DNA of 29,162 nucleotides from a virus, in IMG/VR virus record IMGVR_UViG_3300000929_000461, positions 1 through 29,162 of that record. One strand, 5' to 3'. Below, in pieces: positions 9,062 to 25,786 of this stretch. Both the position numbers and the translations under genes were made by a program. Each line of letters starts with the position of its first letter. Position 1 is the first letter of the stretch. The notes beneath the pieces were generated by a model. That model was not told the DNA's origin and did not search any database. It was given only the letters and a program-made list of their open reading frames with translations.

Positions 9062-10392
9062 TGACATACGGTCTAGCAATATACGATGATAATGGTGATC
9101 TAGTAACTGAGTTTGCCGGTGGCGAAACTGTTTTAAGAAAGGTTTACACCACTACAACTTCCACAAATTCTTCAGGCAGTGCTAAAACTATTTCTACTGG
9201 GTTGACAGATTTAAACTCGAGTAATAGTTTGGTTGTCTGTCAAGGAACAACCACCTCGACAGAAGGTGGAGGAAATACCGCGAATATTCCAGTAAGAATG
9301 AACAGTAACGGTGTTATTCAAATTGCAAATACGAACGCACAGCGTGGCGGTCCAATAAGTGTTAGATTAACTGTGTTACAGTATGCTGATAAAACAGCAG
9401 GTACTTCGAGCAATTATGGTTTGTCGTTAGAAAATGGCGATGGCGATGTTGTTATCGACGAAAACTCTTTGGTCTTAAATGTTCAAGAGACGCACGATGT
9501 GAACGCCAACTTGTCTAATGTAACCAAGTATACCTTTGCTGGAAACGCTATGTCATACTTCAAAGTAGACCTAAGCGGAACATATCCTATCAGCGCAGGG
9601 ACTCCGGTAGCAGGTCTTAAAGGTGGCGGTGCCATATTCCCGCCATACTTTTACGGAACAGACGGTGTTAATTACACCTCGGTAATGTGCGTCATACCGA
9701 CATCTGAAGTAACATCAAATAACTCGGGTTACAATTTGGCGATTATGGTTGACGCTGATCAACTTGGGTCTCAGACACCAACCTTTTATGGGGGCAATGA
9801 AAGCGGGTATGGTATGGAAATCTATAATTCCAGCGGAGACCGAATATGGAGTTCTCAATACAAGCAAGCAATCATTACAAATATCGTCAGCATCGATGGT
9901 AAATTTACTACCGGTGTTGGTGGAAACGGAACCAACGATTATAGAATAAACTATGATGGTGTTTCCCCGCCGAGTTACTTGGGTGTTGATGAATATTCTA
10001 GAACTAGAAGTCCTTTGAGTAATTATCTCTGTTCTTCACAAACCGTTCCAATCTCCGGTCTTAACTCTTATGTCCCGAACGAGACATATGTTCTTAGTTT
10101 TGGCGTTGCTGGAGAAGTGGTGTATAAGAAAGCGAACCGAACATCACCGGACTTTCCGCAAACCAGTTGGTTAATTAATGCTGCAAGCACCGGCGGAAGA
10201 TTTCGTCCTGCGATCACTATAAGTAGTAGTGGAAGTGCTTCGACTAGTTGTAGCATCACTATGTTAAGAGAAAAGGATGGTCCTGCAAACAATACACCAA
10301 ACGGGCAGTATTTTGCGACAGATGACATGCAAAGAGATAGTTTGAAAAGTTGGCACCCCACTGGTAAGTTTGTATTGGCGAAAATAAAATAA
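9061..10392 (+). CDS. Tail-fibre-associated protein with three YGL-type motifs
   Basis: 443 residues, starting at the TAATG overlap with the preceding stop. This suggests coupled translation, since no separate strong ribosome site is needed. Three copies of a strand-turn motif are visible: YGLAIYDDNGDLV at residue 3, YGLSLENGDGDVV at 119 and YGMEIYNSSGDRI at 250. Each is followed by a hydrophobic strand (TVLRKVYT, LVLNVQET, AIITNIVS). I know the pattern Y-G-L-x-(I/V)-x-x-x-x-G-D from short phage tail proteins of unknown function; here it is tandemly built into one chain. The remainder is Ser/Gly/Thr-rich beta structure. The gene overlaps the next one by one base in the same way. Role as a fibre or tail-tip component is inferred. 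Confidence 0.78.
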   Translation: MTYGLAIYDDNGDLVTEFAGGETVLRKVYTTTTSTNSSGSAKTISTGLTDLNSSNSLVVCQGTTTSTEGGGNTANIPVRMNSNGVIQIANTNAQRGGPISVRLTVLQYADKTAGTSSNYGLSLENGDGDVVIDENSLVLNVQETHDVNANLSNVTKYTFAGNAMSYFKVDLSGTYPISAGTPVAGLKGGGAIFPPYFYGTDGVNYTSVMCVIPTSEVTSNNSGYNLAIMVDADQLGSQTPTFYGGNESGYGMEIYNSSGDRIWSSQYKQAIITNIVSIDGKFTTGVGGNGTNDYRINYDGVSPPSYLGVDEYSRTRSPLSNYLCSSQTVPISGLNSYVPNETYVLSFGVAGEVVYKKANRTSPDFPQTSWLINAASTGGRFRPAITISSSGSASTSCSITMLREKDGPANNTPNGQYFATDDMQRDSLKSWHPTGKFVLAKIK

Positions 10393-13300
10393 TGCATAAT
10401 CATTTCTTAGATAAAAAACGAAGACACATAAATCTTCGCGATGCAAAAGTGGAGAGTGTTCTACCGGAACACTTCTCTGACTCGTATCCAAAATTTATTT
10501 CTCTGCTTGAGAAGTATTATGATTTTATGGATTCGGATCATTCTACTGAATTGCTTTCGCACCTATTTGCTGCACGGGATGTTAACGAAACAGACATTAC
10601 TTTGCTTTCTTATATCGAAGATGAATTACTTCTGGGTGAAGCATACTTCGAAGGGTTTGGTGAAACTGAATCACAGAAAAGAGCAGCAGCAAACTTCTCA
10701 AATATTCTATTTCGATCGAAGGGCACTAAATTTGCGATCGAATGGTTCTTCCGATCTTTCTATGGTCTAGATTCGGAAGTAACATATACAAAAGAAAATA
10801 TATTTAATATTGGCGAAACCAGTTCTAGGATTGGACCAGAATCTCTTAGATATATCACCGACGATAAACTCTATCAAACATTCGCATTATTAGTTCGTGC
10901 CGGAATTCCTATTTCGAAGTGGCGTGAAACATTTAAACTGTTTGCTCATCCTGCGGGAATGTATCTCGGTGCAGAAGTATTGATTGACGACGATGTTGTT
11001 CTTGGTGTGAATACATTAATGGATGCACTTGCAGTTCAGCAGTATCCAACACCAGAATATTCAATAACAGTATTTCCGGCGACGACGGCAGATGAAGGGA
11101 CAGAATTTACGTTCAATGTTTCGGGCACAGGTATCCAGAACAACGGTACAAGTGCATTATACTATTATATTGAACACATGTCAACCAATGATTCAGATTT
11201 CGTCACCCCACCTCCACAGTTTTCGACAGCAGCATATCTTCCGGTAAATAGTTCAACTGCTTCATTTGCGATACCGACTAGGTTGGATACAGACGAAACA
11301 GAAACACAAGAATCGTTTATGGTGAAACTCAAAGATGATGAGGACAGAGAGGTTGCTTCGACGATTGTAAGGTTGAATAACGTTACCTCATCATATACAA
11401 TGTCACCATCAAATCCTTCTGTGGATGAAGGACAACCACTAACAATATCTGTCTCAGGAACCGACGTCCCGAACGGCGGTGAAACAACACTTTTCTATTA
11501 CGTCGAGCATATAACAACAGTAGACGATGATTTCGTAACGCCACCACCCTCGATTACAAACGCACAACCTTTCGATATCTCAAGTTCTACTGGACAATTT
11601 GAGATATTAACAAAGGTTGATAATGCTGAGAGTGACGAGCAGTTTAGAGTTCATATTAAAACTGAACCAACGGGCGGTATAATAAAGGACACGATAACAG
11701 TTACATTGAGAGATGTCGCACCATCATTCACAGTTACTGCTGATGATGTTACTGAGGGCAGTGATGTATCGATAACCTTGCTTGCCGACGCTTCGACTAT
11801 CGGAGAAACGGTCAACTGGGTTATAAGTGGACCAGTCGCATCAGATCCTAGGGTTGCATCTACTTCTGGTTCGTTTGTAGTCGCATCGGTAAACCAAACA
11901 TATACGCTGACAACAACAACATCTAACGCACCCTATGACGGTGCTGTCAACGGAACTGTAACGCTTACATCGAGTCCATCTGGATTTACTTCTAACGATT
12001 CGTTCGACTTGGTAGACCAACCTGCATCTTACACGATAACTCCAACACCTACAGTTGGATCCAGAGGCGGCACAACCACCTTCGAAATCGGTGGCACGAG
12101 CATTCCGGATGGTACAGTAGATTTTTATATCGAACACGGGACGACTAACAATGCTGACTTTGTGGGCGGCAATCCACCATTAGTCGGAACTCCAATATCA
12201 GTCAACATCGTAGGCGGTGTCAGTTCTTCTTCTCCATCGCTTTCGTTTGTGGCGGACAGCGATCTTACCGAAGAAGAATTTACAGTGTTTGTTAAGCAGG
12301 GCAGTACTGTTCTAACCAGCATAGAATACTCGGTGCTCGGAAGTCTAACATATGCGATCACTCCCTCTACAAATTCCGTCGACGAATCAACTTCATTTCC
12401 GAGTTACTTTGTTACAACGGACAATGATGGAACATACTATTATTATGTGCAGGGGACTAATATAACTGCAGATGATTTTTCAGCAGGATATGGTTCTATA
12501 TCTTCCCGCCAATCCTTTAATGTCTTTTCGGGATCGGGAACAGTTAGTCTTACATTGAGTGAAGATAAGAATCGGGAAGGAAACGAAACATTTAAAATAT
12601 TTATTTCAAAAACTTCTACTGGTGCGGTTGTGGCGGAATCTTCAACAATTACAATCAGCGACACCTCAATACCCACATATACAATAGCGTCCGGTAATTC
12701 AACTGAAGGCGAAGTCCATACAGTTATCATAACACCAGATGCTACTTCCACCGAAAACATTCACTTAGAGATTACAGGTGATGGTGTTATTGGACGTTTC
12801 CCTATAACAGAAAAGACGGTATCGGTAGATCATAATGCCGCGTTCACTCCTGTGTATTTTTCGACAACAGATTCTCCACTTTATGAGGGGTTTCAAGCAG
12901 GAATAGTCACTGCAAGGTTTGATAGTGCAGGAGGTGCCGTTGTAGGATCTGACAGTTTCCTTTTATTCGACAACGTGCCGTCTTACTCTTTGGTAACAGA
13001 TCTCCCTAATGACTCAGCAAGTGAAGGCGATACGATTAACTTCACCTTCTCAGGAACAGGAATCGCTGACAGCGACTATTTCTACCGCCCTTTGAGTATG
13101 AAACCTGCTATTGTCGATCAAGTCGTGGCGCAAGGGACTTCCTTCATATACCTAGAAGATACCAGCAACTTGTCAGTCGGTATGGAAACTAATATCTCAG
13201 ATATTCGCGGAGTAATTACTTCCGTGGTTTCTAGTGGCGTGCAAATGAATCTTTCGACATTGTCGACAATTCCTGTAGGAACCCGATTCCACTTCTCGGA

Positions 13301-13943
13301 TGTTGGAAACTTTGATGATTTTACTATAGGTAATCCCGCGACCGGTACAGTAACCACTTCTGCAAACTCAGGAACATTCCGAATAGATGTCGCCGAAGAT
13401 TCTGACTTTACCAACGAAACATACTCAATTCGAGTCTACGAGAAATTCGGAGATAATGCTCACCTAGCATCTAGATCGTTCACTATCGAAGACACAACCT
13501 CTGGTGCGCAGGCAGAGTTTTCGAACAAACCACTCTCTATCAGAACGACAACTGACGACATAAGTGTTACTGTATCGTTGAGGTTCCAGACAGATGGTGT
13601 AATTAAGTCTTCTGCCCTGACTACCCAGAATATCCAGAGAACAATCGGAACTTGGTTAAACCCGACTACGAACCTCCCCGCTAATGCCGGAAATTATAGG
13701 GTTCGAGCAGCACTCTCAAATTGGAATGGATCAACTGCTCCTGCGGGGAGTTTCGGATCATGGTTGACTCTCAGCACTGATAGGCAATGGTCGATCACTG
13801 TTTATTATCCTGATTTTGACGCGGATATGGATGTGACCTTTGAGGTACAAGAAATTGGAAATGCTTCTAATTCAGACACTTGGTCTGTCAATCTCAGAGC
13901 AATCGAAGAATATCAACCCGACGATGGTACTTTTGAACCCTAA
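10392..13943 (+). CDS. Large adhesin-like structural protein: conserved head domain plus seven Ig/Calx-beta-like domains
   Basis: 1183 residues, starting at a TAATG overlap. Residues ~1-205 are mixed alpha/beta and unlike the rest (LPEHFSDSYPKFISLLEKYY, RSKGTKFAIEWFFRSFYG). I remember similar N-terminal domains at the start of large virion proteins of marine T4-like phages, where they probably join the protein to the baseplate. Seven beta-sandwich domains of ~100-110 residues follow, the last enlarged to ~174, beginning at residues 223, 335, 446, 547, 654, 763 and 865. They typically open Y-(S/T)-I-T/S and contain an early (D)EG motif, as Calx-beta domains do. The C-terminal ~145 residues are distinct and may be the binding tip. 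There is no signal peptide, so it is a virion rather than a secreted adhesin. Host attachment is inferred. Confidence 0.82.
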   Translation: MHNHFLDKKRRHINLRDAKVESVLPEHFSDSYPKFISLLEKYYDFMDSDHSTELLSHLFAARDVNETDITLLSYIEDELLLGEAYFEGFGETESQKRAAANFSNILFRSKGTKFAIEWFFRSFYGLDSEVTYTKENIFNIGETSSRIGPESLRYITDDKLYQTFALLVRAGIPISKWRETFKLFAHPAGMYLGAEVLIDDDVVLGVNTLMDALAVQQYPTPEYSITVFPATTADEGTEFTFNVSGTGIQNNGTSALYYYIEHMSTNDSDFVTPPPQFSTAAYLPVNSSTASFAIPTRLDTDETETQESFMVKLKDDEDREVASTIVRLNNVTSSYTMSPSNPSVDEGQPLTISVSGTDVPNGGETTLFYYVEHITTVDDDFVTPPPSITNAQPFDISSSTGQFEILTKVDNAESDEQFRVHIKTEPTGGIIKDTITVTLRDVAPSFTVTADDVTEGSDVSITLLADASTIGETVNWVISGPVASDPRVASTSGSFVVASVNQTYTLTTTTSNAPYDGAVNGTVTLTSSPSGFTSNDSFDLVDQPASYTITPTPTVGSRGGTTTFEIGGTSIPDGTVDFYIEHGTTNNADFVGGNPPLVGTPISVNIVGGVSSSSPSLSFVADSDLTEEEFTVFVKQGSTVLTSIEYSVLGSLTYAITPSTNSVDESTSFPSYFVTTDNDGTYYYYVQGTNITADDFSAGYGSISSRQSFNVFSGSGTVSLTLSEDKNREGNETFKIFISKTSTGAVVAESSTITISDTSIPTYTIASGNSTEGEVHTVIITPDATSTENIHLEITGDGVIGRFPITEKTVSVDHNAAFTPVYFSTTDSPLYEGFQAGIVTARFDSAGGAVVGSDSFLLFDNVPSYSLVTDLPNDSASEGDTINFTFSGTGIADSDYFYRPLSMKPAIVDQVVAQGTSFIYLEDTSNLSVGMETNISDIRGVITSVVSSGVQMNLSTLSTIPVGTRFHFSDVGNFDDFTIGNPATGTVTTSANSGTFRIDVAEDSDFTNETYSIRVYEKFGDNAHLASRSFTIEDTTSGAQAEFSNKPLSIRTTTDDISVTVSLRFQTDGVIKSSALTTQNIQRTIGTWLNPTTNLPANAGNYRVRAALSNWNGSTAPAGSFGSWLTLSTDRQWSITVYYPDFDADMDVTFEVQEIGNASNSDTWSVNLRAIEEYQPDDGTFEP
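11058..13505 (+). repeat. Array of seven Ig/Calx-beta-like domain repeats arranged (A-A-B)(A-A-B)-A
   Basis: Domain starts are at 11058, 11394, 11727, 12030, 12351, 12678 and 12984. Type A domains (1, 2, 4, 5, 7) carry an aromatic strand such as YYIEH, FYYVEH, FYIEH or YYYVQG, mostly followed by DDF or ADF. Type B domains (3 and 6) lack it. They open with TEG and run through a T-DSPLYEG or TSNAPYDG stretch to SFLLFDN or SFDLVDQ. Domain 7 carries a ~70-residue insertion. Repeats are conserved at protein level and diverged at DNA level. Confidence 0.78.
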
Positions 13944-13973: not shown

Positions 13974-14339
13974 ATGAAGGCAGGAAAGGTTTGGGGAACA
14001 ACCCAACTTATAGAAAACAACAGTTCACTCGAGTTTCATCGGATCGAGTTTAAATCGAATCATTGTTGTTCCGAGCACTATCATAAAACAAAGTGGAACG
14101 GATTCTTCGTAGAGTCGGGCGTATTGCTAGTTAAGACATGGCAAGATGAACCAGAAGATTCACGAAAGAATATGACATGCGATCAAACTGTACTTCGCGC
14201 CGGAGACTATTATAAAGTCGAACCCCTAAAATGGCATCAGTTCATTGGTGTTGAGGACGGCGTTGCATTCGAACTTTACTGGTCTGAATTTGACGGTGAG
14301 GATATCGTCAGAAGGACTACGGGGCAGAAACTTGACTGA
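13974..14339 (+). CDS. Small single-domain cupin protein
   Basis: 121 residues; GGGAG lies just upstream of the ATG. The cupin signature is clear. Motif 1 is H35-Y-H37 with E47 (HYHKTKWNGFFVESG), and motif 2 is G77-D-Y-Y-K with P84 and H88 (AGDYYKVEPLKWHQF). Together these give the three His and one Glu that bind a metal ion in functional cupins. Size and pattern resemble the cupin part of mannose-6-phosphate isomerase-type proteins. I remember near-identical architecture (GKVWGTT...FHRIE...GFFVESG) in cyanophages. It overlaps the terminase small subunit gene by eight bases and is co-transcribed with packaging genes. Substrate and role are unknown; a sugar-related or regulatory role is only a guess. 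Confidence 0.85.
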   Translation: MKAGKVWGTTQLIENNSSLEFHRIEFKSNHCCSEHYHKTKWNGFFVESGVLLVKTWQDEPEDSRKNMTCDQTVLRAGDYYKVEPLKWHQFIGVEDGVAFELYWSEFDGEDIVRRTTGQKLD

Positions 14340-14691
14340 TCAAGATAAGAAAAATATCAAAGATGATTACGAAACATCTCGCGATACATACCTCGAATTA
14401 ATAGAAAGCGGAAAGCGTGGACTTGACTTAATGGTAGAAGTGGCGCGAGAGTCAGAGCATCCACGCGCATTCGAAGTCTTATCAGGTATGATTAAAAACG
14501 TCGCTGATGTGACCGATAAATTAATGGATCTAAATAAGAAACATAAAGAAATACAGAATGATCCTAAACGAGATGATGAGGCGAAAGCGATTACCAATAA
14601 TAATGTTTTTATTGGCAGCACGACCGACCTACAGCGATTGCTTCATCAAACAGATGAGAAGGTGATCGAAGTTGATTCTCAGGACGAATGA
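14332..14691 (+). CDS. 16: Terminase small subunit, gp16-like
   Basis: 119 residues from a TTG at 14332 that overlaps the cupin stop (TTGACTGA). The frame stays open upstream to an ATG at 14245, but those residues come from cupin codons read out of frame and look non-protein-like, so I prefer the TTG. The body is mostly helical: KDDYETSRDTYLELIESGK, then VARESEHPRAFEVLSGMIK, then VTDKLMDLNKKHKEI. SEHPRA(F/Y)EV is the block I recognise from T4-type gp16. gp16 forms a ring that recognises DNA and regulates the packaging ATPase. It is somewhat shorter than T4 gp16 (164 residues). It lies directly before and overlaps gp17, the canonical T4 order. The ribosome site for the TTG is weak (GGGGCAG), consistent with coupling to cupin translation. 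Confidence 0.85.
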   Translation: MTDQDKKNIKDDYETSRDTYLELIESGKRGLDLMVEVARESEHPRAFEVLSGMIKNVADVTDKLMDLNKKHKEIQNDPKRDDEAKAITNNNVFIGSTTDLQRLLHQTDEKVIEVDSQDE

Positions 14692-18548: not shown

Positions 18549-18575
18549 GTGGGGGCGAAATCCCCCACTTTTTTT
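18549..18575 (+). terminator. Rho-independent terminator after gp19
   Basis: Perfect stem GTGGGGG (18549-18555) with CCCCCAC (18562-18568), loop CGAAAT, followed by seven T. It lies 13 bases after the gp19 stop. Confidence 0.92.
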
Positions 18576-18657: not shown

Positions 18658-18730
18658 ATAGTAGGACGCTCAGTTTTTCAAAGAGAAATCTTTGGGCGTT
18701 TACGTTTAGGGACAATCTTTGGATAATAAC

Positions 18731-20446
18731 ATGGCAGAAGAAAGCAACAATTCATTCAACATTTTTGGATTTGAAGTAAAAAGAGCAAATAAATCCAAGA
18801 ATACAGGAAAGCAAGAACTCCCCTCTCCAGTCGCCCCGACCGATCCTGATGGATCCGGTTATATATCGAGCGGTGCTGGATATTACGGACAGTATGTAAA
18901 CCAAGAAGGCGAGCAAGCAAAAGACAATCAACAATTGATCATGCGTTACCGTGGTGTTTCAATGCACCCCGAAGTCGACATGGCAATTGACGAAATCGTC
19001 AACGAAGCAATCTCAGCATCAGAATTGTCATCATCTGTTGAACTATCGACCGATGATATTGAAGCACCTGATAAGATTAAAGATCAGATTCGTGAAGAGT
19101 TTTCGAATATCGTTAACATGTTAAGTTTCAACGAGATTGGACATGACATGTTTCGTGGTTGGTATGTAGACGGAAGAGTCGTTCACCATCTACTCGTTAA
19201 TGAATCTAATTTAAAATCAGGTATTCAAGAAATTCGTCATGTTGACGCAGCAAGAATTCGAAAGGTCAAAGAAGTCAAACATAGGAAAGACCCAAAGACT
19301 GGGGTCAAGGTTGTCGATTCTGTCGAGGAATATTATGTTTATGAAGAAAAACCTGGAGCAGCAAGTAACGCCATTCGAATATCAACAGACGCAATCAGTT
19401 ACGTTACCTCTGGTGTATTAGACGAATCTAAGAAAAAGATTCTCTCACACCTTCATAAAGCATTAAAACCAATTAACCAATTGCGCATGATGGAAGATTC
19501 ACTGGTAATCTACCGTCTTGCTCGAGCACCAGAACGTCGTATCTTCTATATTGATGTCGGTAACTTGCCGCGTGGCAAGGCAGACCAGTACATGAAAGAT
19601 ATTATGTCAAAGTACCGTAACAAATTGGTCTACGATGCCAACACAGGTCAGATCAAAGACGACCGCAAGCATATGTCAATGCTTGAAGATTTCTGGTTGC
19701 CGCGTCGTGAGAACGGTCGTGGTACTGAAATCACCACACTTCCTGGAGGTGAGAACCTTGGGCAGATCGACGACATCATTTATTTCCAGAAGAGATTATA
19801 TCGTTCGTTGAATGTACCGGTCAACCGTTTAGAGCAGGAATCACAATTCTCCCTAGGAAGAGCGACAGAAATATCTCGCGACGAAGTTAAGTTTCAAAAG
19901 TTTATTGATAGACTTCGTCGTCGTTTCTCATGGATGTTCCTAGGCATTCTCCGCAAACAACTATTGCTCAAGCAGATCATCACAGAGCAAGATTGGGAGC
20001 AATGGAAAGGGGACATTTATGTTGACTTTGTTCGCGATAACTATTTTTCAGAGTTAAAGGAAGCAGAGATTCTTAGAGAGCGACTTGGACTGATGAACGA
20101 GATTACTCAGTTTACAGGCGAATATTTCTCTAAAGAATGGGTACAACGTAATGTACTGCGATTATCAGATGATGATATCGAAGATATGGAAAAAGAAATT
20201 AAAGGGGAAATTGAATCTGGAGAGACCGACGATCCAGAAGAAGAACCCGATGAAGCACCAGACACTAAAGCAGAACCACAACAGCAGGAAGAGCATTTTT
20301 ATATAAAAGATGGGAATTCGGATAACGCTCTTGATTATATTTACGAAGAAATAGATTCGGAACCGGAGCGTTACATACCAACTCAAGAAGATGAACTTAT
20401 CGAGACTATGACTCGATATATGAATAAATTGGTAGACGAAGAGTGA
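18731..20446 (+). CDS. 20: Portal vertex protein, gp20-like
   Basis: 571 residues from ATG 18731. A TTG twelve bases upstream (18719) has a better-spaced AGGGA, so the start could be there (575 residues). Family blocks in order: the N-terminal GYISSGAGYYGQY; MHPEVDMAIDEIVNEAI; GRVVHHLLVN; VDAARIRKVKEV; RLARAPERRIFYIDVGNLP with KADQYMKDIM; DDRKHMSMLEDFWLPRRE; TTLPGGENLGQIDDI; and LGRATEISRDEVKFQKFIDRL. The portal is a dodecamer at one vertex that nucleates prohead assembly and docks the terminase. The C-terminal ~75 residues are an acidic extension (EEEPDEAP...) making it longer than T4 gp20 (524). The last gene base is four bases before the collagen-like gene. Confidence 0.96.
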   Translation: MAEESNNSFNIFGFEVKRANKSKNTGKQELPSPVAPTDPDGSGYISSGAGYYGQYVNQEGEQAKDNQQLIMRYRGVSMHPEVDMAIDEIVNEAISASELSSSVELSTDDIEAPDKIKDQIREEFSNIVNMLSFNEIGHDMFRGWYVDGRVVHHLLVNESNLKSGIQEIRHVDAARIRKVKEVKHRKDPKTGVKVVDSVEEYYVYEEKPGAASNAIRISTDAISYVTSGVLDESKKKILSHLHKALKPINQLRMMEDSLVIYRLARAPERRIFYIDVGNLPRGKADQYMKDIMSKYRNKLVYDANTGQIKDDRKHMSMLEDFWLPRRENGRGTEITTLPGGENLGQIDDIIYFQKRLYRSLNVPVNRLEQESQFSLGRATEISRDEVKFQKFIDRLRRRFSWMFLGILRKQLLLKQIITEQDWEQWKGDIYVDFVRDNYFSELKEAEILRERLGLMNEITQFTGEYFSKEWVQRNVLRLSDDDIEDMEKEIKGEIESGETDDPEEEPDEAPDTKAEPQQQEEHFYIKDGNSDNALDYIYEEIDSEPERYIPTQEDELIETMTRYMNKLVDEE

Positions 20447-20450
20447 TTAA

Positions 20451-22508
20451 ATGCCAAAAATCGACCCAGCGGTCATTCATGCCTTTAGCATTGCTTATAC
20501 AAACGAGCAACTAAAAAAGCAGGAAAACCGTCTCAAAGAAGAAATAGAAACTAGACTTAAAGAAAGAGTTTCTGATTTCGTCACTGATGATATTCGCGGA
20601 GCACGTGGTCCACAGGGAGCACGCGGTGAAACGGGTGCACGTGGTTATCAGGGCATCAAGGGCGATCGCGGAATCAAAGGTGAGAAGGGCGATCGTGGCG
20701 AGCGAGGCATTAAAGGGGATAAAGGAATCAAGGGTGATCTTGGTTCTATTGGTCCCCAAGGTATTGCTGGTCCTCAAGGTATTCAAGGTCTACAAGGTGA
20801 GATTGGTCCTCAAGGTATTGCTGGTCCTCAAGGTGATAAAGGCGAAAGAGGATTTCCAGGACTACAGGGCACGACTGGAGAGAAAGGGGAAACTGGTCCG
20901 GCAGGTATACAAGGCGCTCAGGGTGTTAAAGGAGAGCGCGGAGAACTCGGTCCAGAAGGTCCAGAGGGACGTCAAGGCACGAAGGGTGACGACGGTGCCC
21001 CTGCTCCAGATTACGAACCAAAGTTCCAAGAACTCGTTGGGCAGTTTAACAAGAAGATCTCAGAAGTCGAGAAAGTTGCCAATCAACGGATTCAGCAAAA
21101 ACTAACCACTCTCGGAAACGGTGTCGTCGCTTCTACTTCTGGTGGTGGTTCGTACCAGTTACTTGACAACCGCGATGTAGAATACAAATCTATTAAGAAG
21201 AACGAATTAGACAGCGACTCTATTCTAATCTTCAATCGTGCTGAGAAAAAGTTTAAAGTTGAATCCCTGACTGATGCATTAGAAAGACTTGGTGTTGGGA
21301 CTGGAACCGGTGGCGGCACAGAGCATCCTTACTTCGGTTGGTTGACAAGTGGTGCTACTGATCAATTTAGAACGACTTCTTCTTTCTTCGAAGACTCTAG
21401 CGAATATGCAATCAGAAGTGTTAGTTTTGTTGACAACCAACTTCAAGTCGAACTGGCGAACTTCTCTCCTATCGTTGCTGCGACGGGTCAAAGTCTTTCT
21501 TGGGATGAACCTGCTTCTCAATTCTCAGTTACTGTCGATAACCCAGAAGACTTCACCGACAGATATATCGCTGCTGTTTCTTTGATCGATAATGCTTCTG
21601 GTGTTCATGATTCGGTTTCTGCATATACCACCACAGGCGCGTCTGAGACCCCTGCAGGCGGTGTTGACTGGTCGCAAACCTTTACGGTAAATGACTCCGC
21701 CGAAATCTATTCGAGCGGGAGTGGTCTTACAGGCGGTTCAGCGTCCGCACGAATTTCGTTTGAAGAAGACGACGGCACTACTTGGGAAGATAATAGACCA
21801 ACAATAAATTACAACTGGCAAAATGCTAACGGGTCGATAAACTTCTCTAACCTTTCGGGTAAGAATTTCCTTGAAAGTTACACGACTGTCAACTATAATG
21901 TTTCTATAACAGGAATGAGTAACCTTTCAAATGCTGCCGTGACGGTTACACCAATCGGCGGATCTTTGTCCAATACTTCCGGAAGCGGAACGATGACGTT
22001 GGCGACTCCACTTCACAAAGAAAATAACAGTGGCAGAGAAGTCGGTCTAGAAGTAATTTTCTCTCGTCCCGAAGGTGTGACGGGAACAGCATACACAGCA
22101 ATTGATAGTGATAATGATAATACAATCTCGGCATCGTTCTCATATCCTTCGTTTTATATCTTTACCGTTGACAATGCAACACCACCTTTACGTTCCGATA
22201 TCGTTTCCGGAAACGACTTCAGTTCATCAGTCACTGAACTTGGTAATCAATCGAAAAATCTTTCGACCGTGATCACAAACGGTACGGTTGACCCGAGGTG
22301 TTTCTGGTTTGCGATTAGGAGTAGTGCTTCACAACCGACTGTATTGCAGACTGGACCATCCGAAGCATTATTGAGTGATGTTAATTACACCACGGGATAT
22401 ACAGCAGATCTAGAACCAGACAGCGCGGCAGTTGATTACACTTCTGAAGAATATACTTTATATGGCATCACCTTACAGCCAGGTGATACTTACGTGAGGA
22501 TTCAGTAA
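20451..22508 (+). CDS. Collagen-like fibre protein with globular C-terminal region
   Basis: 685 residues, starting four bases after the gp20 stop, with only a weak GAAGAG upstream, so translation is probably coupled. Residues ~18-45 form a charged helix (LKKQENRLKEEIETRLKERV), a likely trimerising coiled coil. Residues 50-182 are an uninterrupted Gly-X-Y stretch with 45 consecutive triplet glycines, predicted to form a collagen-type triple helix. Residues ~188-235 look like a second helix. Beta-rich modules follow, ending in a ~120-residue terminal domain (CFWFAIRSSASQP, then LYGITLQPGDTYV). A trimeric fibre is a firm inference; whether it sits on head, neck or tail is unknown. Location between portal and prohead genes suggests head or neck. 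Arginine codons change from mostly CGN in the collagen half to mostly AGA/AGG in the C-terminal half. Confidence 0.85.
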   Translation: MPKIDPAVIHAFSIAYTNEQLKKQENRLKEEIETRLKERVSDFVTDDIRGARGPQGARGETGARGYQGIKGDRGIKGEKGDRGERGIKGDKGIKGDLGSIGPQGIAGPQGIQGLQGEIGPQGIAGPQGDKGERGFPGLQGTTGEKGETGPAGIQGAQGVKGERGELGPEGPEGRQGTKGDDGAPAPDYEPKFQELVGQFNKKISEVEKVANQRIQQKLTTLGNGVVASTSGGGSYQLLDNRDVEYKSIKKNELDSDSILIFNRAEKKFKVESLTDALERLGVGTGTGGGTEHPYFGWLTSGATDQFRTTSSFFEDSSEYAIRSVSFVDNQLQVELANFSPIVAATGQSLSWDEPASQFSVTVDNPEDFTDRYIAAVSLIDNASGVHDSVSAYTTTGASETPAGGVDWSQTFTVNDSAEIYSSGSGLTGGSASARISFEEDDGTTWEDNRPTINYNWQNANGSINFSNLSGKNFLESYTTVNYNVSITGMSNLSNAAVTVTPIGGSLSNTSGSGTMTLATPLHKENNSGREVGLEVIFSRPEGVTGTAYTAIDSDNDNTISASFSYPSFYIFTVDNATPPLRSDIVSGNDFSSSVTELGNQSKNLSTVITNGTVDPRCFWFAIRSSASQPTVLQTGPSEALLSDVNYTTGYTADLEPDSAAVDYTSEEYTLYGITLQPGDTYVRIQ
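20598..20996 (+). repeat. Collagen-like Gly-X-Y repeat tract (45 uninterrupted triplets)
   Basis: Every third codon from residue 50 to 182 encodes Gly. Typical triplets are GPQ, GIK, GDR, GEK and GIA, with many Lys/Asp/Glu pairs that stabilise bacterial-type collagen helices lacking hydroxyproline. Within it, 20748-20780 and 20802-20834 are a 33-base direct repeat differing at one base by eye, 54 bases apart, which could permit length change by recombination. Confidence 0.95.
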
Positions 22509-23032
22509 TGTCAAATTACGACGGTCTCACTAGAAACTCATGGACAGGGACGTGGTCCCCTTCTGCAGAACATCCTATTGTTCTGGATACAGAAATCCGT
22601 GGTGGATTAAGGTTTGTTTCTGGTGATTCGGATGATCGTCTCGAAGATATTACCGGTCAAAGACTTCAAGAAGGAATGCTTGCATACCTAAAAACTGGGT
22701 ATGATAGTTTCTCAAGTGACACTTATTATAAATATTCATTGCTCAGTGGCGAAAGTAGAGATACATCTACAGGTGACATGCCGAATGCTGCTGGGAACTG
22801 GTCTCCTGTTTCCTTTGGAGGCGGCGGTCAGACCACAACATCTTATAAATACGACCTGAGTGGAACTTCTTATACTGTTTCACACAACGGCAAGAATACC
22901 ATTTCCAATTTTTATGTGCTGGATCCCACGGGAAATGAGGTAGGTGTTCTTACCAACTTGACGAATACTCAATTGACGGTCGAATCTCTTATCGATCTGA
23001 CTGGTCATGAACTTTATGTTGTTATATTATAA
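22508..23032 (+). CDS. Small fibre-associated virion protein, unrecognised
   Basis: 174 residues. Its ATG overlaps the previous stop by one base (TAATG), with GAGGA upstream. The N-terminal half contains GGLRFVSG, then LEDITGQRLQEGMLAYLKT and a later AAGNWSPVSFGGGG, similar in layout to the HGMFAHVHATG...AGNW block of the 489-1148 protein. The C-terminal ~45 residues (TNTQLTVESLIDLTGHELYVVIL-type ending) match the end of the next protein (ANNLTLTSLVGLTGVKVTV), so the two share a terminal beta-module. It is co-transcribed with the collagen-like gene and may form its tip or an adaptor. Function is inferred from architecture only. Confidence 0.75.
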   Translation: MSNYDGLTRNSWTGTWSPSAEHPIVLDTEIRGGLRFVSGDSDDRLEDITGQRLQEGMLAYLKTGYDSFSSDTYYKYSLLSGESRDTSTGDMPNAAGNWSPVSFGGGGQTTTSYKYDLSGTSYTVSHNGKNTISNFYVLDPTGNEVGVLTNLTNTQLTVESLIDLTGHELYVVIL

Positions 23033-23083
23033 AAATAAGAAAGTAGTTTTTTATTCGAATAGAAAATAAGGGAGAAAACTCCA

Positions 23084-24670
23084 ATGGCAACAAAGCAATT
23101 TTACCACAATATTGACCTCGTAAAAGTAGGTCAGTTACTCGACGCACGAATCAAGAACGTCACCTCTGCCGAGAAATCAACTCTTGCTGCACAACTCGGT
23201 AGCGGAAACAAAGGTTTAGTCATTTATGACACAGACCTTTCGGAAATGGCGATCTGGGATGGCGTAACATTCCGTCAGGTATCTTCTGATATCACTGGCG
23301 ACGTTATCTTCCGTGGCGTTATTAATCCAACCAACGCAGATACTGGTTCTGTTGAAGCAGTAAATGGTAACCAGTACGTTGCTGATACAGCAGGTACGTT
23401 GGCGAAGACTGGCGTAACTTTCTCACCTTCTGCGGAAGTAGAAGTTGGCGATATCGTACTCTTCACAGGTACAACAACTGCTACAATCCTGCAGCGCAAC
23501 GTTGACTACGCAACTGCAACTGTTGCTGGTATCGTTGAACTCGCTACACAAGCAGAAGTTGATGCCGGTACTGATGTTGATCGCGTAATCACGCCAGCAA
23601 CATTGGCAGGTTCGCAACTCGCTTCTGACGTCGCAACCAATGCTACTGACATCGCTGCTGCTGAAGCAAAGATTGGTCAGGACTCTCCAAATGGTTCTTA
23701 CCTCACACTAGACACTACATCACAGACTGTTATCGCGGCAATTAACGAAGTAAATGCTGCACAATTAGCAGATTCTGACAGAGTAGCAGGTAACGACTCT
23801 GACATCGCTGCACTTCAAGGACGCGCTACTGTAATCGAAAGTCGTTTAGACGGTCACGATTCAGATATCTCTGATCTTGTAGCAGTCGATACAGCACAAA
23901 CTTCACGTCTCGACTCAGCGGACACCCGTTTTGTTGCAGTAGAAGGTCGTGTAACACAGAACGAAGCAGACATTGCTGCGCTTCAAGGTGCTGACTCAGA
24001 CCTCGACGCACGTTTGGATGTTGCAGAAGCACGTCTTGACTCAGCGGACACGCGTTTCGTATCTCTAGAAGGTCGCGTATCTACTACTGAATCTCGTCTT
24101 GATTCAGCAGACACGCGTTTCGTCGCTGCAGAAACCCGTATCACCCAGAACGAATCAGACATTGCTGCTCTTCAGGGCGCTGATTCAGACTTCGGTGATC
24201 GTTTAGATTCAGCAGATACACGTATGGTGGCAATCGAGACTCGTCTCACTGGTCACGATACTGATATCTCTGCTCTGCAAGGTGTCGATTCAGATATTAA
24301 AGCATTCGTTGGTTTCGGCGAAACTCTTGATACATCTGCTTCAACTCTTGTTTCTGCAATCAACGAACTCCACGGTGAGATTAATGACAATGATTCGGAC
24401 ATCGCTTCACTACAAGGTCGTGTAGGTGATCTTGAAGCACGCGATAATGTCAAGGTCCACACTGATCAAAGTGTTTCGATTCTTGCTAACACTCCAAAGA
24501 CTGTTAACCACGCACTGGCACTTGCTAACGCGACTGGTTTCGTCATTAACGTGATGGATTCAGACGGTTCACAGATCTCTGTAGACGTTGACGCAGTAGA
24601 TGCGAACAACCTTACTTTGACTTCACTGGTCGGTTTGACTGGCGTTAAAGTTACAGTAATGGGTGTATAA
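23084..24670 (+). CDS. Coiled-coil repeat fibre protein
   Basis: 528 residues; GGGAGA precedes the ATG. Residues ~1-140 are a head domain (LLDARIKNVTSAEKSTLAAQ, GLVIYDTD). Residues ~145-180 carry VAGIVELATQAEVDAGTD and ITPATLA, a known phage fibre motif. Residues ~240-404 are a long repeat of LDSADTRFVA.E.R.(T/S) and IAALQGADSD units, with hydrophobic residues every three to four positions, as in trimeric coiled coils such as T4 fibritin. The C-terminal ~40 residues match the end of the preceding protein. By my reading 21 or more of 23 arginine codons are CGN, like the capsid gene and unlike the fibre genes, suggesting high expression. It ends at a strong terminator. A head or neck fibre or decoration is plausible; not proven. 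Confidence 0.82.
   Translation: MATKQFYHNIDLVKVGQLLDARIKNVTSAEKSTLAAQLGSGNKGLVIYDTDLSEMAIWDGVTFRQVSSDITGDVIFRGVINPTNADTGSVEAVNGNQYVADTAGTLAKTGVTFSPSAEVEVGDIVLFTGTTTATILQRNVDYATATVAGIVELATQAEVDAGTDVDRVITPATLAGSQLASDVATNATDIAAAEAKIGQDSPNGSYLTLDTTSQTVIAAINEVNAAQLADSDRVAGNDSDIAALQGRATVIESRLDGHDSDISDLVAVDTAQTSRLDSADTRFVAVEGRVTQNEADIAALQGADSDLDARLDVAEARLDSADTRFVSLEGRVSTTESRLDSADTRFVAAETRITQNESDIAALQGADSDFGDRLDSADTRMVAIETRLTGHDTDISALQGVDSDIKAFVGFGETLDTSASTLVSAINELHGEINDNDSDIASLQGRVGDLEARDNVKVHTDQSVSILANTPKTVNHALALANATGFVINVMDSDGSQISVDVDAVDANNLTLTSLVGLTGVKVTVMGV
23801..24297 (+). repeat. Coiled-coil-encoding sequence repeats
   Basis: The unit (C/T)GACTCAGCGGACACxCG or close variants recurs at about 23909, 24034, 24098 and 24204, encoding LDSADTR each time. 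The alternating unit GACATyGCTGCxCTTCA (DIAALQG) recurs at about 23801, 23968 and 24157. Copies are partly identical in DNA, so the array could expand or contract. Confidence 0.82.
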
Positions 24671-24704
24671 TATAGATTAATTTCTATACTATATAATGTA
24701 AGAG

Positions 24705-24732
24705 GGGAGGACTTCGGTCCTCCCTTTTTTTT
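24705..24732 (+). terminator. Rho-independent terminator with UUCG tetraloop
   Basis: Perfect 8-bp stem GGGAGGAC (24705-24712) with GTCCTCCC (24717-24724) around a TTCG loop, followed by eight T. A C(UUCG)G loop is exceptionally stable. It ends the gp20-to-coiled-coil transcription unit. Confidence 0.95.
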
Positions 24733-24759
24733 GTTTACTAAAAACTGAGGGTAATGAAA

Positions 24760-25173
24760 ATGAGTTTTGATTGGAATAAACCAACTTCTCAAATGCTGGG
24801 AAGATGGCAACCATGGCACGATGGACACTCCGCACTCTTTAAGCGGTCGTTTGCTGAAACTGGGCAAGTCGTAATTATGATTCGTGACGTTGGTGGAATA
24901 GTCGGCAGTGACGCTAGTGGCGGTCGAACCGAAGCGCAGGATGACAATCCATTCGACTTCGAAGTTGTAAAACAAAACATTGTTGATGGTCTTTCGAAAG
25001 AAGGGTTTCAAAACGAAAGGGACTATATTATTATGCTCGTCCCAAATATCGTTGATATTAGTTATGGTCGGGGCGTCGGATACACCTTTACAGAGCACGA
25101 TCTCGGAAAAGAAATTCATGATATCAGCGCAACAAAAATTAGAGCGAAATTAAGAGAAGAAGGCAAACTTTAA
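24760..25173 (+). CDS. Nucleotidyltransferase-like protein (HxGH superfamily)
   Basis: 137 residues from ATG 24760, chosen because TGAGGG lies eight bases upstream; an ATG two codons earlier (24754) is too close to it. Residues 14-23 read GRWQPWHDGH, the GRFQPxHxGH nucleotide-binding motif. Residues 122-128 read ISATKIR, the matching ISxTxIR motif near the C-terminus. Together they place it in the cytidylyltransferase/NMN-adenylyltransferase-type superfamily, whose members join a nucleotide to a small phosphorylated substrate and release pyrophosphate. The middle contains IMIRDVGG and IIMLVPNIVDI, Rossmann-like strands. The substrate (NMN, phosphopantetheine, sugar or polyol phosphate) cannot be told from sequence. 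It is a soluble enzyme set among head genes, directly after a terminator, so its transcription probably depends on read-through or an unseen promoter. Confidence 0.85.
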   Translation: MSFDWNKPTSQMLGRWQPWHDGHSALFKRSFAETGQVVIMIRDVGGIVGSDASGGRTEAQDDNPFDFEVVKQNIVDGLSKEGFQNERDYIIMLVPNIVDISYGRGVGYTFTEHDLGKEIHDISATKIRAKLREEGKL

Positions 25174-25184
25174 AGGATTATATT

Positions 25185-25391
25185 ATGGCGGATAAAGTTT
25201 TTGCGGGATTACAACTTCCCAATTTAGACGGCGCAGTTGCTAGGGAAGCAGATGCTGGATTTGTTAGAATTTTCTTCTATGACGGCAAATTATATTGTCG
25301 CGACGATCAAGGGGAAATCTTCGAACTAGCGAAGGGCAAGAAAAAGAAAATAGAAGATTTAGTCGACGATGATGACGACGGAGGTGATTAA
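25185..25391 (+). CDS. Small acidic-tailed protein of unknown function
   Basis: 68 residues; AAAGGA precedes the ATG by 8 bases, 11 bases after the enzyme gene. Residues ~1-45 look like a small beta-domain (VFAGLQLPNL, then VRIFFYDGKLYC). A basic patch GKKKKIEDL follows, and the chain ends in a run of Asp (VDDDDDGGD). Cyanophage-like short proteins next to gp67 have this general form, but I cannot name a family. The opposing basic and acidic ends and the position next to the prohead core genes suggest an internal head or core-associated protein; this is inference. Confidence 0.7.
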   Translation: MADKVFAGLQLPNLDGAVAREADAGFVRIFFYDGKLYCRDDQGEIFELAKGKKKKIEDLVDDDDDGGD

Positions 25392-25446
25392 TAACGCACC
25401 TATATAGAACTGTGGTATTTTTATTATTTTCATTTTGGAGATTATT

Positions 25447-25749
25447 ATGGAAAATCAAGAAGTAGAAACTGTTGTTGCGGAAGTAGAAGCAGCACCAATC
25501 GAAAACAACAATCCTATTGCGGATCTTTTAAAGTCAATCGAAGGCGAAGATTTCAATACGGCAGAAACTCAATTCAACGACCTAATCGGCGACCGACTTC
25601 AAGACACCTTGGATCAAGCAAAGGTTCGTATTGCCAGTTCCATCTATAACGGCGAAGAACCAGAGCAAGAAGAAAGCGAAGAAGATCTTGATATCGACGC
25701 TGAATTAGAAGTTGAAATTGAAGACGAAGACTTGGAAAACGCGGAATAA
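25447..25749 (+). CDS. 67: Prohead core protein, gp67-like
   Basis: 100 residues from ATG 25447. GGAG sits six bases upstream and decides this start over an in-frame TTG at 25435. The layout fits T4 gp67: a short amphipathic N-terminal half (NPIADLLKSIEGEDF, then FNDLIGDRLQDTLDQAK), the phrase YNGEEPEQEE aligning with T4 IEGEEPEDED, and a strongly acidic C-terminus (EVEIEDEDLENAE). gp67 is an internal prohead core component needed for correct head shape and is cleaved by gp21 in T4. Gene order (before gp21) agrees. Confidence 0.8.
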   Translation: MENQEVETVVAEVEAAPIENNNPIADLLKSIEGEDFNTAETQFNDLIGDRLQDTLDQAKVRIASSIYNGEEPEQEESEEDLDIDAELEVEIEDEDLENAE

Positions 25750-25778: not shown

Positions 25779-25786
25779 TATAAATA
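25779..25786 (+). promoter_or_regulatory. T4-type late promoter (TATAAATA) before gp68-like/gp21
   Basis: Exact octamer in the 67-base gap after gp67, about 30 bases before the ATG at 25817. It would drive the gp68-like, gp21, gp22 and gp23 cassette. Confidence 0.75.

What the first reader, a model, noticed from the sequence alone, without database searches (positions are those of the whole stretch)
20451..25391. About 5 kb accessory block between portal and prohead core genes
In T4 gp20 is followed directly by gp67. Here five extra genes intervene: collagen-like fibre, two fibre-type proteins sharing a C-terminal module, a nucleotidyltransferase and an acidic-tailed protein. The position in the head cassette and tight coupling to gp20 suggest a head- or neck-borne appendage system distinct from the tail fibres at the left end.
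Basis: partly seen in the sequence, partly recalled or inferred. Interest (0 to 1): 0.65.

Follow-up and report, generated by a model that had tools for sequence, protein, structure and literature searches.

The report
Phage fibre cassette beside portal gene
In a group of uncultured marine T4-like viruses, a swappable set of genes for host-grasping fibres sits inside the normally fixed head-building gene cluster and is inherited together with an extra tail on the portal protein, so it may be a second host-recognition device, although its place on the virus particle is not known.

Summary
They are not one unit.

(1) gp20, the collagen-like protein, p174 and p528 form one operon between predicted terminators at 18549 and 24700. 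The collagen protein's last 389 residues (A) and p174's first 105 (B) are a joint-like pair: 57 of 60 A genes from diverse viruses are followed directly by a B gene. So this looks like a two-part fibre (collagen-shafted A, distal B) plus a coiled-coil fibre, p528, which has a T4 tail-fibre motif.

(2) The nucleotidyltransferase and p68 lie beyond the terminator. The enzyme's close relatives mostly sit outside the head cluster, beside a P-loop kinase. p68 matches the start of a 920-residue protein, so it is probably a truncated fibre.

(3) The cassette is inherited with a C-terminal extension of gp20: of 123 gp20s, 40 have both, 83 neither, none one alone. This arose in two distant lineages, but there are only 4-5 independent changes.

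The head/neck claim is not shown. The portal link favours it; the tail-fibre motif, and the known position of the T4 gp20 crown inside the capsid, argue against it. Most likely it is a mobile host-recognition fibre cassette in a new place.

The parts
18549..18568 (+). predicted intrinsic terminator after gp19; left edge of the gp20-fibre transcription unit
   Evidence: an equivalent hairpin before gp20 in L091 and L116
18719..20446 (+). gp20 portal protein, 575 aa; residues from about 505 on are a clade-specific acidic linker plus the conserved C-terminal peptide YIPTQEDELIETMTRYMNKLVDEE
   Evidence: Pfam E 1e-168; tail comparison
20451..22508 (+). collagen-like fibre protein (A), 685 aa: helical N-terminal anchor (1-48), about 45 Gly-X-Y triplets (about 50-186), post-collagen neck module (187-290), C-terminal Ig-like array = A domain (297-685)
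22508..23032 (+). p174 (B): N-terminal B domain (1-105), which follows the A domain in nearly all viruses sampled; C-terminal tip module (112-174)
23084..24670 (+). p528: coiled-coil fibre; N-terminal beta region, gp34/gp12-like tail-fibre motif (106-217), helix 212-396, C-terminal module related to that of p174
24700..24729 (+). strong predicted intrinsic terminator (13 pairs, T-rich tail) that ends the gp20-fibre unit
   Evidence: equivalents after the first fibre genes in L091 (16136) and L116 (14627)
24754..25173 (+). nucleotidyltransferase (GRWQPWHxGH and ISATKIR motifs), 139 aa; recent insertion, not part of the fibre cassette
25185..25391 (+). 68-aa ORF: N-terminal module of a larger fibre protein with an acidic tail; probably a truncated fibre
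25435..25749 (+). gp67 prohead core protein (right-hand neighbour)
   Evidence: phrog_1064 E 2e-6; synteny
25779..25786 (+). exact T4-type late promoter box TATAAATA before gp68; present just upstream of gp68 in relatives

Best explanation
The block is a mobile host-recognition (receptor-binding) fibre cassette in the gp20-gp67 gap, co-transcribed with the portal gene and exchanged together with the last part of gp20. SHOWN by sequence: the collagen protein has a conserved N-terminal anchor, a collagen shaft and a C-terminal A domain (predicted Ig-like array). The next gene nearly always begins with the B domain. p528 is a separate coiled-coil fibre with a tail-fibre motif. INFERRED: the collagen protein is a trimeric proximal fibre segment. 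Its A domain is the joint on which the N-terminal B domain of p174 docks. The variable C-termini of p174 and p528 are exposed tips that bind the host surface. The gp20 tail is kept because it helps mount or assemble these fibres. The mounting site is not determined; I put baseplate/tail at about 0.5, portal vertex/neck/head at about 0.35, and elsewhere or internal at about 0.15. The nucleotidyltransferase is an unrelated cargo gene.
For: The collagen gene follows gp20 directly in about 45 related contigs, with very different downstream fibre genes. A-B adjacency is 57 of 60. The A model is a tandem Ig-like array (AlphaFold pLDDT 83; best structural neighbours adhesins, Z up to 6.5). p528 matches the T-even long tail fibre proximal subunit (E 4e-8) and gp12 (E 1.5e-3). 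Terminators bound gp20 plus fibres in three genomes. Of 123 gp20s, 40 have collagen and tail, 83 neither, 0 discordant; 5 changes of each on the tree, all in step, 4 of them on starred branches. A distant T4-like virus (gp20 47% identical) has the same order gp20-A-B-p528-p68-like, whereas 50 of its closer kin have no collagen gene after gp20 and no such tail.
Against: No proteomic or imaging data; receptor binding is inferred from architecture only. The gp20 tail/collagen association rests on 4-5 independent events (sign test p 0.125) and could be simple physical linkage at a recombination border. The tail of the distant lineage resembles the others only weakly. All fold matches of the A domain are of middling score. 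The p528 model is low in confidence and gave no significant fold match.
Confidence: 0.7

Rival explanations
1. Portal-vertex or neck appendage: the conserved gp20 C-terminal peptide on its flexible acidic linker is a docking or assembly site for the helical N-terminal anchor of the collagen fibre, so the fibres are mounted at the portal vertex during head assembly.
For: 40/83/0 co-occurrence in step on the tree. The tail peptide is far more conserved (62% mean identity) than the 40 residues before it (about 16%, ungapped). Shared transcription unit. Tail extension and collagen gene acquired together in a distant lineage.
Against: In T4 the crown of gp20 is inside the capsid and only the clip is outside (PMC9958956), so the tail should face the prohead core. 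p528 has tail-fibre motifs. No direct interaction evidence.
Confidence: 0.3
2. Ordinary baseplate/tail fibres that merely happen to be encoded here; the gp20 tail is carried along because the recombination border of the cassette lies inside the 3' end of gp20.
For: p528 resembles gp34/gp12. The A-B pair lies at other positions in other phages, e.g. after gp23 or next to gp13/gp14-like genes. Collagen-repeat receptor-binding proteins are known in the usual tail-fibre island of marine T4-likes (PMC7029224). gp20s without the cassette end within or after a similar linker.
Against: A merely linked, non-functional gp20 tail should drift, yet the peptide is conserved next to a variable linker. The tail was never found without the cassette.
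Confidence: 0.45
3. Prohead-core or internal role: the gp20 tail and the collagen protein act inside the prohead. The tail has an invariant L-x-E, like the conserved L/I-x-E in the gp23 propeptide, suggesting cleavage by gp21.
For: L and E invariant in 41 of 41 tails; conserved L/I-x-E near residue 52 of gp23; neighbours gp67-gp68-gp21-gp22 are core genes.
Against: L-x-E is lost in the distant lineage L252. Collagen, Ig-like arrays and tail-fibre motifs are hallmarks of external adhesins. The gp20 tail is not a copy of the gp22 C-terminus.
Confidence: 0.07

Closest known systems
Host recognition cluster (HRC) of pelagi- and cyanomyophages (PMC7029224)
   Same: Variable island of fibre and receptor-binding genes, some with collagen repeats, in the structural region of marine T4-like phages.
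   Different: The HRC lies between VrlC and gp14; this block lies between gp20 and gp67, shares a transcription unit with gp20 and comes with a gp20 tail.
T4 tail fibres (gp34 proximal long tail fibre, gp12 short tail fibre)
   Same: p528 residues 106-217 match gp34 (E 4e-8) and residues 139-182 match gp12 (E 1.5e-3); an A-B proximal/distal arrangement would work like the joints between T4 long-tail-fibre parts.
   Different: Only a short motif is shared; the genes are not in the tail-fibre cluster; the A and B domains have no detectable isolate relative.
T4 fibritin (wac, neck whiskers)
   Same: p528 is a long coiled-coil protein and hits wac in tblastn through the coiled coil.
   Different: No fibritin Pfam hit, no foldon-like sequence, different gene position.
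NMN adenylyltransferase / NadM-NadR-type nucleotidyltransferases
   Same: GRWQPWHxGH and ISATKIR motifs in the 139-aa ORF; weak NMNAT-model hits.
   Different: Far below curated cut-offs (24 bits against 127); relatives pair with a P-loop kinase; substrate unknown.

Membership tests
T4-type tail fibre protein (for p528) | sequence similarity to a T4 tail-fibre chain | tested here: met
   gp34 chains 9x3r E 4e-8 and 9f4a E 5e-7; gp12 chain 9f4b E 1.5e-3; partial, one motif region only
T4-type tail fibre protein (for p528) | gene lies in the tail-fibre/baseplate cluster | tested here: not met
   lies between gp20 and gp67
T4-type tail fibre protein (for p528) | attached to the baseplate in the virion | not testable with these tools
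   needs cryo-EM or proteomics
T4 fibritin / neck whisker (wac) | fibritin family profile or foldon at the C-terminus | tested here: not met
   no fibritin hit in Pfam or PHROGs; no foldon-like motif
T4 fibritin / neck whisker (wac) | long central coiled coil | tested here: met
   helix 212-396 in the model; tblastn hits to wac, which any coiled coil may give
T4 fibritin / neck whisker (wac) | gene next to gp13/gp14 | tested here: not met
   gp13-gp14-gp15 lie after gp23 in this record
Marine T4-like host recognition cluster | island of fibre/receptor-binding genes | tested here: met
Marine T4-like host recognition cluster | position between VrlC and gp14 | tested here: not met
   position gp20-gp67; definition from PMC7029224
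Head-borne fibre or decoration protein | bound to capsid or portal vertex | not testable with these tools
   only indirect genetic linkage to gp20
NMN adenylyltransferase (ORF 24754-25173) | H-x-G-H and ISxTxxR nucleotidyltransferase motifs | tested here: met
   GRWQPWHxGH in 80 of 80 relatives, an IS(A/G)T(K/E)(I/V)R motif in 65 of 80
NMN adenylyltransferase (ORF 24754-25173) | passes a curated NMNAT profile cut-off | tested here: not met
   24 bits against 127 (NCBIfam NF002243), 17 against 181 (TIGR01527)

The most novel reading that the evidence does not exclude
The C-terminal peptide of the portal protein is a dedicated docking or assembly handle for collagen-like receptor-binding fibres, so these viruses carry a portal-vertex (neck/head) adhesion organelle whose fibres and portal tail are swapped together as one cassette. 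The A-B pair would be a general, previously undescribed joint for building two-part phage fibres.
Probability: 0.22. Interest if true: 0.8.

Novelty: new variant of a known kind. Interest (0 to 1): 0.55.

Why it matters
The gp20-gp67-gp21-gp23 cluster is a standard, fixed part of T4-like genomes, and g20 is widely used as a marker gene for marine viruses. A large clade that keeps host-recognition fibres there, tied to a portal extension, gives a second place to look for host-range genes in uncultured viruses. It also makes a testable claim that portal and fibres co-evolve. The A-B pair is a sequence handle for finding two-part fibres in viral contigs: 57 of 60 A genes sampled here have B next, and neither domain gave a match among 50,697 deposited phage records at the thresholds used.

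Tried and rejected
1) That all five genes form one system: rejected for the nucleotidyltransferase (relatives 70-80% identical lie outside the head cluster, 59 of 80 within 400 bp of a P-loop kinase; the kin L091/L092 lack it). 2) p528 as a fibritin: the wac hits cover only the coiled coil, no foldon. 3) The gp20 tail as a copy of the scaffold gp22 C-terminal motif: suggested by eye and by a weak profile match, rejected by shuffle tests (P 0.08 to 0.69). 4) The gp20 tail as a conserved gp21 cleavage site: L-x-E invariant in 41 tails but lost in L252; left open. 5) The 1183-aa protein 10392-13943 as a fused neck protein gp13-14-15: profile comparisons negative, it is baseplate-wedge-like with Ig-type repeats, and gp13-15 were found after gp23. 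6) A fold search with the p528 model gave nothing significant. 7) The A domain has no PDB sequence relative; structural neighbours are Ig-like adhesins with Z at most 6.5, which may only be a common arrangement. 8) L252's tail as clear homology: shuffle P 0.0035, but 5 of 92 non-collagen C-termini score as high. 9) The antisense ORF 24466-25119 was not pursued. 10) Searches for papers on this gap or on the kinase-nucleotidyltransferase pair found none that describe them (open-access library only).
Full report
SETTING. The window is positions 1-29162 of a 32,901-base IMG/VR virus record from an uncultured T4-like virus. Its late genes run gp16 (within 14245-14691), gp17, gp18, gp19, gp20, then the block, then gp67, gp68, gp21, gp22, gp23. 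The closest annotated genome is phage C48C1 (gp20 67% identical). There gp20 is followed 12 nt later by the gp67 homologue, and gp20-gp21 is 0.64 kb. The cyanophages and the pelagiphage Mosig that I inspected also have only small genes in this gap. In the window the gp20-gp21 gap is 5.6 kb.

ANATOMY. The collagen gene starts 4 nt after gp20; p174 overlaps the collagen stop; p528 follows 51 nt later. A strong predicted terminator (13-pair stem, T run) lies at 24700-24729 just after p528, and another lies between gp19 and gp20 at 18549. The same bracketing (hairpin before gp20, hairpin after the first fibre genes) is found in the relatives L091 and L116. A T4-type late promoter box lies just upstream of gp68 in the window and in the relatives examined. 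So gp20 plus the fibre genes look like one transcription unit, separate from the core/capsid unit. The nucleotidyltransferase and the 68-aa ORF lie between the two.

THE FIBRE PROTEINS. The collagen protein has a helical N-terminal anchor that is conserved across the clade (AF[T/S/N][I/V/L][A/V][Y/H]T...K.E), about 45 Gly-X-Y triplets, a conserved post-collagen module (GGGSYxxxDNxDVxxxx...ILIF/Y), and then C-terminal domains that differ between sub-clades. In the window the C-terminal domain is a 389-residue region, here called A, predicted as a tandem Ig-like beta array (pLDDT 83). Its best structural neighbours are bacterial adhesins and Ig-superfamily ectodomains at Z 5-6.5, which may be only a common arrangement. 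p174 starts with a 105-residue domain, B. Independent scans showed that A and B travel together. In the scan with B, A preceded it in all 18 contigs outside the window's own group (L161-L178). In the unbiased scan with A, 57 of 60 distinct genes with readable downstream DNA had B in the next gene at -3 to +13 nt. A is always at the extreme C-terminus of its protein (336-2484 aa), B always at the N-terminus of its protein (153-1749 aa); everything else varies. These viruses include T4-like viruses with the pair after gp23 or beside gp13/gp14-like genes, and others that I could not classify. The simplest reading, an inference, is a physical joint: A is the distal end of a proximal fibre segment and B the base of the distal segment. 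Neither domain gave a match among 50,697 deposited phage records at the thresholds used. One A gene was found in a Gammaproteobacteria MAG contig.

p528 has a conserved N-terminal region, a motif (106-217) that matches the T-even long-tail-fibre proximal subunit (E 4e-8) and gp12 (E 1.5e-3), a long helix (212-396), and a C-terminal module related to that of p174 (E 4.5e-5). The p174-type tip module is also found fused directly to a collagen protein in L105 and L107, which supports exchange of tips between fibres. The 68-aa ORF matches the first 44-58 residues of 171- and 920-aa fibre-like proteins in L105 and L252, so it is most likely a truncated fibre.

THE NUCLEOTIDYLTRANSFERASE. More than 590 viral contigs encode a relative; the 80 fetched are 70-100% identical. 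Apart from the window's group (L002, L003) and L079, where the T4 genes run on the other strand, they are not near T4 head genes; 59 of 80 have a small P-loop kinase within 400 bp upstream, and many lie near sugar-nucleotide or DNA-replication genes. In some siphophages kinase and transferase are one ORF. It is a cargo gene, not part of the appendage. The closest named family is NMN adenylyltransferase, but curated cut-offs are missed by far.

LINK TO THE PORTAL. gp20s followed by the collagen gene have an extra C-terminal region: a variable acidic linker and then a conserved peptide, YIPxxxDELxExxTRYMxKL. Pairwise identity of the 23-residue peptide averages 62% among divergent members, against about 16% ungapped for the 40 residues before it. 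In 123 gp20 sequences the collagen gene and the tail are both present in 40, both absent in 83, discordant in none. On the gp20-core tree each trait changes five times, always together, four times on well-supported branches. The sign test on four pairs is only p 0.125. The distant virus L252 (gp20 47% identical) has the same order gp20-A-B-p528-p68-like and an extended gp20, whereas 50 of its closer kin have neither collagen gene nor tail. Its tail resembles the others only weakly. Two readings remain: the tail is functionally needed for the fibres, or the border of an exchanged DNA segment lies inside gp20. Conservation of the peptide next to a drifting linker favours function. T4 topology (crown inside the capsid, PMC9958956) argues against simple external docking.

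VERDICT. Best explanation: a mobile two-part-fibre host-recognition cassette, co-transcribed with the portal, in a position not reported in the papers found (0.7). The mounting site is open: tail/baseplate about 0.5, portal vertex/neck/head about 0.35, other 0.15. It works like known tail-fibre islands (HRC, PMC7029224) but is not at their place, and p528 is not a fibritin by the tests made. Novelty: new variant of a known kind. The portal-docking reading and the A-B joint are the novel parts that the evidence does not exclude.

Noticed in passing
L083:9270-11653 (record positions 29270-31653, just beyond the window): Neck genes gp13, gp14 and gp15 lie after gp23 in this record, whereas in C48C1 they lie before gp16; other members of the clade also lack them before gp16.
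   Followed up: partly
24754-25173 and loci L004-L081: A P-loop-kinase plus nucleotidyltransferase gene pair, 70-80% identical for the transferase, is widespread in marine viral contigs (more than 590 relatives), yet only 6 deposited phages have a distant (28-36%) relative, some of them with kinase and transferase in one ORF. Function unknown.
   Followed up: partly
10392-13943: 1183-aa protein with a baseplate-wedge-like N-terminus (PF23786 E 7e-11) followed by Ig/Calx-beta-type repeats; it takes the place before gp16 that gp13-15 hold in C48C1.
   Followed up: partly
13974-14339: Small cupin gene (Cupin_2, cysteine-dioxygenase-like PHROG hit E 2e-13) just before gp16.
   Followed up: no
L116:16923-19007: In a sister lineage the gp20-gp67 block holds a relative of phrog_1645, a virion structural protein that cyanophages keep between gp16 and gp17.
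   Followed up: partly
18719-20446 (last 20 codons) and gp23 N-terminus (27765 on): Invariant L-x-E in 41 of 41 gp20 tails and conserved L/I-x-E near residue 52 of gp23: possible sites of the gp21 prohead protease.
   Followed up: partly
L083:11873-12901: After gp15 an open ORF with repeats of the type MFxxCxxFNxxIxxWDVSxV (BspA-like by eye), a likely surface protein.
   Followed up: no
L319 (NZZP01000034.1): A contig binned into a Gammaproteobacteria MAG encodes an A domain (43% identical); possibly a viral contig or prophage in the bin.
   Followed up: no
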